Positions 12,548-50,514 of a stretch of DNA of 64,000 nucleotides are shown here, one piece after another (within the stretch, counting starts at the first letter, position 1; every line of letters starts with the position of its first letter). The translations under genes and the position numbers were made by a program. The stretch lies in IMG/VR virus record IMGVR_UViG_3300042261_002391, positions 1 to 64,000 of that record. One strand, given 5' to 3'. A model generated the notes under the pieces. It ran no database searches and was not told the origin of the DNA. It worked only from the letters and a program-made list of their open reading frames with translations. The DNA is from a virus.

Positions 12548-12931
12548 ACATTCAGTCGTCATGGTTGGACGTACAACCTCTGAATGACCATTGCCGATTG
12601 GAGTGTCACTGTCACTGTACCCAGTTCGTTACGCTGGCTCTGGAGGGTTGCTCCCATGTTACTATACACCAATACAGCTATGTTTCTCCCGAACTTAATC
12701 GATTTCAACGGTTGGATTTCTCGCACTGGCATAGTTACTCGAAAACTTTTCAAACCCTGAACATTCCATGCGCATAGTTTGTTCTGAGGTATCGGGATTC
12801 ACGACCATTATTCGCCTTCATACTAGAATATATACTTTCATCTCCGTTCTTCTTATGCATCTTCCAAACTTTGAATCCGGCAACGCCTAGTTTACTAACT
12901 ACCCGAATTTCCTACCAGCATTTAATTTTGT
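12548..12931 (-). ncRNA. candidate structured non-coding RNA
   Basis: About 380 bases between the tRNA-like gene and the terminator, read from the ECF-type promoter at 13068. Base composition is less AT-rich than neighbouring genes and no frame looks like a phage gene; the only 64-codon frame (12559-12753) has foreign codon use. Near its 3' end CATTCAG and CTGAATG close a nested hairpin containing GGTTG/CAACC. The function is unknown. Confidence 0.35.
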
Positions 12932-13052
12932 GGGCGCAGAAGGATTCGAACCTCCAACTCAATCCTAATCATGTTAACCTAATTAAGACCGAGATACTAA
13001 CAACCAAAGTGCACTGTCATTAGTGTGCGTTTACCAATTCCGCTATGAACCC
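12932..13052 (-). tRNA. 121-nt tRNA-like RNA, Leu-type body
   Basis: A canonical T arm (GGAGG-TTCGAAT-CCTTC), a 7-bp acceptor (GGGTTCA with TGCGCCC, one mismatch) and a Leu-type D arm (GCG-GAATTGGTAAA-CGC) are present. Between them are ACTAA/TTAGT closing a 19-base loop where the anticodon arm should be, and a 12-bp hairpin (CTCGGTCTTAAT with ATTAGGATTGAG) in place of the variable arm. It is read from its own ECF-type promoter 16 bases upstream. It may be a non-decoding tRNA mimic, or a tRNA with insertions. Confidence 0.55.
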
Positions 13053-13093: not shown

Positions 13094-13438
13094 ATGACTA
13101 TTAACTTTTTTTGGTTTATATATCATTTTACCTTCCTTATCATTCTTAATTAAAAAGAAATTATGTTTGCCGTAGAAGCCATACAATTTCTTTAGTTCTA
13201 ATCCATGTGCATTGGTAACGTGTAAAATGATTCGAACATTATGTATCTCAGCGTACTTAATAATCTCGGACAATACTGCTGAACCATAACCTTTATTTCT
13301 TTGTGATTTTTTGATGACAATTGATTGTAAACATATGTACAATCCCTGTTCATCCGTACATTGAGATAGATTCAATTCCTGAATCTTGTTTTTGAACTTG
13401 TCCTTTTTTAAATAAGAACTGAATACATCTATATCCAT
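13073..13438 (-). CDS. GNAT-family N-acetyltransferase
   Basis: 121 residues. The acetyl-CoA binding motif A is clear at QRNKGYGSAVLSEIIKYA (Q-x-x-G-x-G/A), preceded by the beta strand YICLQSIVI and followed by LHVTNAHGLELKKLYGFYG, the motif B region in which the acceptor pocket forms. The fold is short but complete. The substrate is unknown. The C-terminus runs through the next promoter and stops 4 bases before its CGTA. Confidence 0.8.
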   Translation of the reverse strand: MDIDVFSSYLKKDKFKNKIQELNLSQCTDEQGLYICLQSIVIKKSQRNKGYGSAVLSEIIKYAEIHNVRIILHVTNAHGLELKKLYGFYGKHNFFLIKNDKEGKMIYKPKKVNSHCNLLIA

Positions 13439-18567: not shown

Positions 18568-18593
18568 TACGTTCTTAAATAAAAAAGGTTACA
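18568..18593 (-). promoter_or_regulatory. ECF-type promoter of small RNA copy 2
   Basis: TGTAAC, 16 bases, CGTATAAG. Confidence 0.85.
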
Positions 18594-19775: not shown

Positions 19776-19801
19776 TACGTTTTTAATTAGAAAAGGTTAC
19801 A
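19776..19801 (-). promoter_or_regulatory. ECF-type promoter
   Basis: TGTAAC, 16 bases, CGTATAAG; follows directly after a terminator. Confidence 0.85.
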
Positions 19802-19810
19802 GATATAAAC

Positions 19811-19841
19811 AAAAAAAACCGCACCATATTTAGTGCGGTTT
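19811..19841 (-). terminator. terminator of the non-coding unit
   Basis: AACCGCAC pairs with GTGCGGTT around 8 bases, followed by TTTTTT on the minus strand. Confidence 0.85.
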
Positions 19842-20240
19842 TCATTTACTACGGGTTATCAGGTAAGAGGCGATATTTGACCGCATTGCCCATAATTGGC
19901 AGCAGATTTCCGGCTATCGTACTGCTCTTGGCTGGCGGTTCTCGGCATTCGGTGGTCGGCGATTTCTCGGCGACCCCATTCATAGTTGTCAGCGATTTCT
20001 CGGTGACTAGTGCCTCGGTGTTCCCGTAGATTTTTTCAGGTTATTTAATAAGTATAATATATATCTTTACCTCTAGGGCGAATCTCTTGTTTTCATAATA
20101 CGCAACTTTAGCGAGTTCATTACTTTCTATAATATTAAGTTTTTTTACGTTCGTTTACCCATCAGGGTCGGTCTCTTGTTCTCATACCTTCCGGTTTTAG
20201 TGTGTTCTTAACTCCTTAATATTTATCTCTGCGCACCCTT
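19842..20240 (-). ncRNA. stand-alone structured non-coding RNA, about 400 nt
   Basis: It has its own ECF-type promoter (20252) and terminator (19811) but no credible ORF. Two hairpins, GTCACCGAGAAATCGCTGAC and GTCGCCGAGAAATCGCCGAC on the minus strand, have the same internal G·G-type mismatch, the same loop and a compensatory A-U to G-C change. Upstream, a second repeated module contains TATGA(A/G)AACAAGAGA twice. The function is unknown. Confidence 0.55.
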
Positions 20241-20251
20241 TGTACTTCTTA

Positions 20252-20277
20252 TACGTTTGGGTTTCGAAAAGGTTACT
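20252..20277 (-). promoter_or_regulatory. ECF-type promoter of the 400-nt RNA
   Basis: AGTAAC, 16 bases, CGTATAAG; one mismatch in the first box. Confidence 0.75.
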
Positions 20278-29111: not shown

Positions 29112-29120
29112 ATTATTATG

Positions 29121-29195
29121 AGCATGGAGTGGGATTCGAACCCACGACTTTACAGTTTTGCAGACTGTTGCCTTTGACCACTCGACCATCCATGC
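29121..29195 (-). tRNA. tRNA-Cys (GCA), copy 1
   Basis: Full cloverleaf: acceptor GCATGGA/TCCATGC, D arm with GAGTGGTCAA, anticodon loop CTGCAAA (GCA), T loop TTCGAAT, discriminator U73. CGTATAAG of its promoter ends 6 bases before G1, so transcription probably starts at or next to the mature 5' end. CCA is not encoded. A near-identical copy lies at 60320. Confidence 0.92.
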
Positions 29196-34246: not shown

Positions 34247-34425
34247 TTGACTATAATCTTATTAAGAATCATTTTAAATAAGCATCAAACATGAAAATAA
34301 CAGCCAAAATATTTGCATATATCAATTTCAATTTATTGCCAGTTTTTAGGCGTTTTAAAGCACTCACCTTTCAACCGGATGCCTTAATCAGATTAGAAAA
34401 GATAATAAATTGCTGGGCAGATAAA

Positions 34426-34510
34426 CCCTACCCACAGGCGTATCCCACCCTCCCCGATACCCCCCAAGACCCCCCCTTTTCACGTCCGGGGTGCAGCGTC
34501 CATGTCCCCT
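34426..34510 (-). other. C-rich tract; G-quadruplex-forming on minus strand
   Basis: On the minus strand runs of seven, six, four, three and three G fall within about 35 bases (34444-34476), with more GGG on both sides, in an otherwise very AT-rich genome. The region 34250-34720 otherwise holds only a doubtful 74-codon frame (34291-34515) that ends in this low-complexity C-rich stretch. Confidence 0.65.
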
Positions 34511-34698
34511 CATAGTTAAAAAAATTCTCTAAAAAAATTTTTAAAAATCCTAAATCATTTGCCTGATTTCCTGATACTTACGCCATTCTATTAATTTTCA
34601 CGACTAAAAAATTTTCAAAAAAAATTTGTGTGTGGCTTGTGATAATAATCTTGAAGATATTAAACGTCATATTAAAAATCTCACAAGTCATTAACGTA

Positions 34699-50379: not shown

Positions 50380-50440
50380 TATTGAATTGCAAATGTAATG
50401 AATAATTTTTAATATACAAGCAATTTCAAATAAATTTTTG

Positions 50441-50514
50441 AGATTCTAGTGGGATTCGAACCCACGATTTTCAAGTTTTAGAGACCTGTGCAATAACCAC
50501 TCTGCCATAGAACC
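50441..50514 (-). tRNA. suppressor tRNA, anticodon CTA (reads UAG)
   Basis: Complete cloverleaf: acceptor GGTTCTA/TAGAATC, D arm with AGAGTGGTTATT, anticodon arm CAGGT-CTCTAAA-ACTTG giving U33 and CTA at 34-36, T arm GTGGG-TTCGAAT-CCCAC, discriminator U73. It decodes the amber codon. The amino acid cannot be told by eye; T arm and U73 are shared with the phage tRNA-Cys. It lies 88 bases upstream of a frame interrupted twice by UAG. Confidence 0.85.

What the first reader, a model, noticed from the sequence alone, without database searches (positions are those of the whole stretch)
19811..20277. Stand-alone 400-nt non-coding RNA with covarying repeated hairpins
Own ECF-type promoter and terminator, no ORF. 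Two hairpins with the same loop and the same internal mismatch differ by a compensatory base-pair change, and a related CCGAGAA element occurs a third time just downstream. A second pair of repeats with TATGA(A/G)AACAAGAGA lies upstream. Repeated stem-loops with one shared loop suggest a multi-site protein or RNA sponge.
Basis: seen in the sequence. Interest (0 to 1): 0.66.

Follow-up and report, generated by a model that had tools for sequence, protein, structure and literature searches.

The report
Orphan two-part phage RNA gene
A large bacterial virus carries a small stand-alone gene that seems to make a folded RNA rather than a protein; its front part has a relative in one other virus, its hairpin part so far has none, and what it does is not known.

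Summary
A phage-type promoter (GTAACC-N15-CGTATAAGAAGTA, about 30-47 copies in this phage) and an intrinsic terminator frame a ~420-nt transcript without a credible gene. Two tandem hairpins (GAAA tetraloop, C.C mismatch) differ by one A-U to G-C exchange, and both repeat pairs exceed all 200 shuffles. The 3' part (20029-19849) is the most GC-rich 181 nt of the window (53.6% against 32.1%), closed by CUACGGG/CCCGUAG; its 45-codon ORF has codon usage unlike the phage's genes. The 5' repeats are larger than reported: two ~82-nt unfolded units, each with a micro-ORF. A single unit occurs behind the same promoter type in a related 327-kb phage (0 of 1000 shuffles as good), with start, stop and frame kept, but substitutions show no coding bias. 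The hairpin domain has no relative in 1.18 Mb of related phages, so 'covarying' rests on one pair in two paralogous copies, and the sponge reading is untested. Best view: an orphan phage RNA with a conserved 5' unit and a lineage-specific folded 3' domain that probably docks a protein. A separate ~70-nt small-RNA family, in six related phages, is arguably the better lead.

The parts
20243..20276 (-). Promoter: GTAACC (20276-20271) and CGTATAAGAAGTA (20255-20243), the class used in front of most genes at about 10-30 kb
19811..20238 (-). Whole RNA gene, about 420 nt; transcription start inferred from promoter spacing
   Evidence: GC 42.1% against 32.1% for the window
20144..20225 (-). 5' unit R1
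   Evidence: repeat test; alignment A5; model search
20055..20136 (-). 5' unit R2, homologous to the G001 transcript at L018 6970-6894 minus
20162..20185 (-). Micro-ORF in R1: MRTRDRP* (the position matching R2's first ATG is AAG here)
   Evidence: translation not shown
20073..20120 (-). Micro-ORF in R2: MNSLKLRIMKTRDSP* (an inner ATG at 20096 gives MKTRDSP*)
   Evidence: start and stop kept in G001; translation not shown
19849..20029 (-). 3' folded domain, most GC-rich 181 nt of the window; closing helices CTACGGG/CCCGTAG (20029-20023 with 19855-19849) and GAGGC/GCCTC (20016-20012 with 19871-19867)
19988..20007 (-). Hairpin A, GAAA tetraloop, C.C mismatch, outer stem GTCA/TGAC
19955..19974 (-). 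Hairpin B, same loop and mismatch, outer stem GTCG/CGAC
19880..19939 (-). Third branch closed by ACCGC/GCGGT, with inner helix GCAGTA/TGCTGC
   Evidence: pair probabilities 0.86-0.98
19849..19983 (-). 45-codon ATG open frame across the 3' domain, judged non-coding
   Evidence: codon usage; no protein relatives above chance; no Pfam
19814..19843 (-). Intrinsic terminator

Best explanation
This is a real stand-alone RNA gene of a large phage, transcribed from the minus strand as its own unit in the cluster of small unknown (probably early) genes. It has two parts: an AU-rich, largely unfolded 5' part with two tandem copies of an ~82-nt unit, and a GC-rich 3' part that folds into a closed multi-branch domain with two near-identical GAAA-capped hairpins side by side. 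Most likely it works in trans as RNA. The paired hairpins and the closed domain present repeated docking sites to an RNA-binding protein of host or phage, while the 5' units, which ribosomes may briefly enter at their micro-ORFs, serve as a single-stranded or translated handle. Shown: signals, repeats, the one compensatory pair, base composition, homology of the 5' unit to another phage's transcript. Inferred: expression, the fold, a protein partner, a decoy effect.
For: Promoter class and terminator. GC peak of the 64-kb window in the 3' domain and codon usage unlike genes. Full transcript folds better than shuffles (z -2.6; 1 of 100 as good); hairpin pair z -2.9. The two copies of the hairpin differ only by a compensatory pair, while both resulting amino-acid changes would be nonsynonymous (T/A and L/P, read from the sequence), as expected if the RNA and not a frame is kept. 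The 5' unit matches the G001 transcript at Smith-Waterman score 57 against shuffles with mean 24.5 and maximum 48, so a separate transcript with this unit exists in another phage.
Against: No relative of the 3' domain was found, so no true covariation. The domain alone (z -1.6) and the transcript without terminator (z -1.6) are only modestly more stable than shuffles. No expression data and no partner. The best candidate homologue by position (G009, L041 7555-7210 minus) folds no better than shuffles (z 0.0).
Confidence: 0.38

Rival explanations
1. The functional product is a micropeptide or the act of translating the 5' micro-ORF (7-16 codons ending in Pro-stop); the 3' domain is a stabilising tail.
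For: Start, stop and frame are kept between R2 and G001 although 6 nt are missing; all copies end in P-stop (MRTRDRP*, MNSLKLRIMKTRDSP*, MKTLNPNSERGSP*), and a syntenic candidate in G009 reads MPKTAVNMEARNKGSP*. The units do not fold. In G001 the micro-ORF is essentially the whole transcript.
Against: Substitutions are spread evenly over codon positions and are mostly nonsynonymous (7 of 10, 8 of 9 and 8 of 9 changed codons). R1 has lost the outer start codon. Similarity extends beyond the stop codon. The G009 candidate is not significant by alignment of the ORF part (131 of 1000 shuffles).
Confidence: 0.24
2. A fast-evolving or decaying region: a GC-rich insert and recent tandem duplications between a promoter and a terminator, with no selected function.
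For: The 3' domain has no relative even among phages with the same neighbouring genes, and G022 lacks an RNA at the syntenic place. Recent duplications give repeats for free.
Against: Complete promoter and terminator; the only two differences between the hairpin copies fall on the two partners of one base pair; the 5' unit persists in G001.
Confidence: 0.2
3. A small member of the ornate scaffold RNA type (like GOLLD or ROOL) that self-assembles through GAAA-tetraloop contacts.
For: Phage-encoded, GC-rich, multi-branched, two GAAA tetraloops.
Against: No Rfam match even at relaxed thresholds; half the length of GOLLD or less; nearest tRNA genes are about 7-9 kb away.
Confidence: 0.08
4. An antisense regulator that pairs with phage leaders or with the phage's small RNAs.
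For: Stand-alone terminated RNA with unfolded stretches.
Against: Duplex energies with 31 promoter-led phage leaders and the 18.5-kb small RNA are no better than with shuffled versions (best z -1.3). Host targets could not be tested.
Confidence: 0.1

Closest known systems
Transcript with the same 5' unit in the 327-kb phage contig IMGVR_UViG_3300042261_001312 (G001, L018 6970-6894 minus)
   Same: Same promoter class, one copy of the unit, micro-ORF start, stop and frame kept, own terminator
   Different: Only ~150 nt, a single unit, no 3' folded domain
GOLLD and ROOL RNAs (PMC12286853)
   Same: Stand-alone, phage-encoded, structured RNAs of unknown function
   Different: No sequence or covariance match; much shorter; not beside a tRNA island
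Dual-function bacterial RNAs with a short ORF and a structured RNA part (SgrS, RNAIII; from general knowledge)
   Same: Short ORF plus a folded non-coding part in one terminated transcript
   Different: Translation and a target not shown here; the ORF shows no coding constraint

Membership tests
GOLLD / ROOL / OLE | Match to the Rfam covariance models | tested here: not met
GOLLD / ROOL / OLE | Location in or near a tRNA array | tested here: not met
   nearest tRNA genes 12931-13052 and 29120-29195
GOLLD / ROOL / OLE | Homo-oligomer formation | not testable with these tools
   needs biochemistry
tmRNA | tRNA-like ends and tag ORF recognised by ARAGORN | tested here: not met
   one search lists tRNAs only
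Any Rfam family (RNase P, 6S, SRP, introns, riboswitches) | Score above the gathering threshold | tested here: not met
Stand-alone terminated small RNA gene | Own promoter of the genome's class and an intrinsic terminator, no downstream gene in the transcript | tested here: met
   the next gene has its own promoter at 19800
Stand-alone terminated small RNA gene | Transcript observed | not testable with these tools
   no RNA-seq available
Structured RNA family with covariation | Compensatory changes across homologues | tested here: inconclusive
   one pair between two paralogous copies; no homologues found
Dual-function RNA | Reading frame under coding selection | tested here: inconclusive
   start, stop and frame kept but no codon-position bias

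The most novel reading that the evidence does not exclude
A new type of phage effector RNA in which tandem micro-ORF units with a conserved Pro-stop end engage ribosomes and are coupled to a protein-binding hairpin domain, so that the RNA tethers a host factor to ribosomes or sequesters both.
Probability: 0.08. Interest if true: 0.8.

Novelty: new member of a known kind. Interest (0 to 1): 0.4.

Why it matters
Stand-alone RNAs of lytic phages with cargo or decoy functions are rarely characterised, and this phage group seems to carry several, all under one recognisable promoter class, which makes them easy to find. If the paired hairpins bind a host protein, the RNA would be a compact takeover device and a handle on an unknown host factor.

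Tried and rejected
Rfam at gathering and relaxed thresholds: nothing relevant. BLAST of the RNA against 50,697 phage records: one chance match at the terminator. Exact hairpin pattern in IMG/VR: none. The window's exact promoter in IMG/VR: none; a relaxed form found the relatives. Close relatives by the 405-aa neighbour: none. BLAST of the RNA in 23 related records: AT-rich or terminator matches except the G001 unit. A weak match in G022 that looked syntenic proved to be AT-rich sequence next to an ordinary gene promoter. Covariance model of the 3' domain over 1.18 Mb: none; unfiltered over the G009 locus: only noise. Sequence model of the 5' unit: only the three known copies. 3' domain as a coding gene: rejected on codon usage, with no protein relatives. 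Antisense pairing inside the phage: no excess. Alignment of the G009 candidate: its ORF part is not significant, the whole is borderline (18 of 1000), its 3' part is not similar. Prokaryote genome collection searched with the phrog_21518-like neighbour: no relative.

Full report
Setting. The window is part of an 88,468-base virus record. Its genes include T4-like rIIA and rIIB, a Dda-like helicase and many tRNAs, so it is a tailed phage, distant from cultured ones. A host in the Bacteroidota is my inference from TAnnTTTG-like boxes at some promoters (general knowledge of that phylum), not tested. Nearly all genes between 10 and 30 kb are on the minus strand and most have their own promoter of one class, GTAACCttt-N-CGTATAAgaagta. 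The 13-mer CGTATAAGAAGTA occurs 30 times with up to 2 mismatches against 2.2 expected; a relaxed pattern gives 46 minus-strand and 1 plus-strand sites in the 88 kb. The finding is one of these units.

The observation. Read on the minus strand, a promoter at 20276-20243 is followed by about 420 nt and a 13-bp terminator at 19843-19814. The neighbouring genes have their own promoters. Hairpins A (20007-19988) and B (19974-19955) have the same GAAA loop, the same C.C mismatch and outer stems GUCA/UGAC and GUCG/CGAC, so the only two differences in 20 nt are the two partners of one pair. Both hairpins have pair probabilities near 1, and the stretch holding them folds better than shuffles (z -2.9). 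Both repeat pairs are beyond chance (0 of 200 shuffles each).

Anatomy. The 3' part, 20029-19849, is closed by CUACGGG/CCCGUAG and GAGGC/GCCUC and holds hairpins A and B and a third branch. The closing helices are near certain when the domain is folded alone (0.99 and 0.89) but compete with other pairings in the full transcript (about 0.5), so the global fold is a proposal. The domain is the most GC-rich 181-nt stretch of the window (53.6% against 32.1%, similar to the tRNAs), which in an AT-rich genome points to a folded RNA. A 45-codon ATG frame crosses it, but its synonymous codon usage is below all 178 gene windows compared, and it has no protein relatives above chance. The 5' part has two units of about 82 nt (alignment A5). 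Both contain micro-ORFs.

Relatives. An exact search for the hairpin found nothing in IMG/VR. A relaxed promoter search and protein searches led to related records: G001 (327 kb), G005, G007, G009, G010 and G022, which share neighbouring genes. In G001 a ~150-nt transcript behind the same promoter class carries one copy of the 5' unit: local alignment score 57 against shuffles of mean 24.5, sd 4.1, maximum 48 in 1000. Start codon, stop codon and frame are kept across a net 6-nt difference (MNSLKLRIMKTRDSP* and MKTLNPNSERGSP*). In G009 a ~345-nt promoter-led, terminated, apparently non-coding transcript lies next to the homologue of the window's 405-aa gene and contains MPKTAVNMEARNKGSP*; similarity is only borderline (18 of 1000 for the whole, not significant for the ORF part), so I treat it as a candidate. 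The 3' domain was not found anywhere else: not by BLAST, nor by a covariance model over 1.18 Mb of related phage DNA (the same model finds the window copy at 237 bits). That model comes from a single sequence and is weak for distant relatives.

Coding or not. For the 5' unit the picture is mixed: frame and ends are kept, but changes are spread evenly over codon positions (5/7/6, 4/5/5, 3/5/7) and are mostly nonsynonymous, and similarity continues past the stop codon. The units may be linear RNA elements, or micro-ORFs whose translation rather than peptide matters. For the 3' domain coding is unlikely.

Mechanism. I commit to a trans-acting RNA whose 3' domain docks a protein at two equivalent hairpins, with a 5' part of unknown partner (confidence 0.38 for the whole statement; about 0.85 that it is a genuine stand-alone RNA gene). 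Steps not shown: expression, fold, partner, effect. Pairing with phage leaders shows no excess; host RNAs could not be tested.

Comparison. It is not GOLLD, ROOL, OLE, tmRNA or any Rfam family. GOLLD and ROOL are phage RNAs that form nanocages, often near tRNA islands, and many GOLLD members exceed 800 nt (PMC12286853); this RNA is shorter and not beside an array. It resembles them only as an orphan structured phage RNA.

A better lead nearby. The same promoter class drives a short RNA that recurs in this phage (promoters at 18592, 25966, 10349) and in G001 (two copies), G007, G009, G010 and G022, several of them just upstream of the phrog_21518-like or phrog_1617-like gene. Consensus of the close members: AGGCUGGGUAAnACUAGGGUGCAGUAAUCCACUCCUGCC, then a UUUAGAAUnAUUCUAAA hairpin. 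RNAalifold on six members gives 10 pairs, two of them with a change on both sides in some sequence, but a positive (unfavourable) covariation term; on ten members it gives no structure. Conservation is clear by eye, structure is unproven, and Rfam has no match.

Noticed in passing
window minus strand, transcripts behind promoters at 18592, 25966 and 10349; L009 180+, L018 15416-, L203 8135+, L207 10175-, L041 3122-, L252 15351+, L053 8101+: Conserved ~70-nt small-RNA family (AGGCUGGGUAAnACUAGGGUGCAGUAAUCCACUCCUGCC...UUUAGAAUnAUUCUAAA) with its own promoter, in six related phages, several copies just upstream of phrog_21518-like or phrog_1617-like genes; no Rfam match.
   Followed up: partly
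window 27460-27372 minus: Structured leader or small RNA behind promoter 27490, upstream of the 109-aa gene at 27342-27013; folds far better than shuffles (z -3.3, 0 of 200); no relevant Rfam match.
   Followed up: partly
window, 10-30 kb: About 30 minus-strand promoters of an ECF-like form GTAACC-N15/16-CGTATAA, shared with related large phages; which sigma factor reads them was not examined.
   Followed up: partly
window 50440-50514 minus: tRNA with anticodon CTA (amber suppressor or Pyl-like), although 7 of 33 sampled genes end in TAG.
   Followed up: no
window 12931-13052 minus: tRNA-like gene of 122 nt found by Rfam but not by ARAGORN, with a long extra stem, behind its own phage promoter (13092).
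   Followed up: no
L018 minus strand, transcripts at 13161, 14057, 18559 and 3' of 13367: Repeated hairpin element GAGUGC-YGAAUUUUUGCCUACCAUAGCAAC-GGCACUC in promoter-led units of G001, a further multi-copy RNA element.
   Followed up: no
window 34420-34515 plus: Short C-rich stretch (runs of C up to 7) in an otherwise AT-rich genome, within a 74-aa ORF of unknown nature.
   Followed up: no
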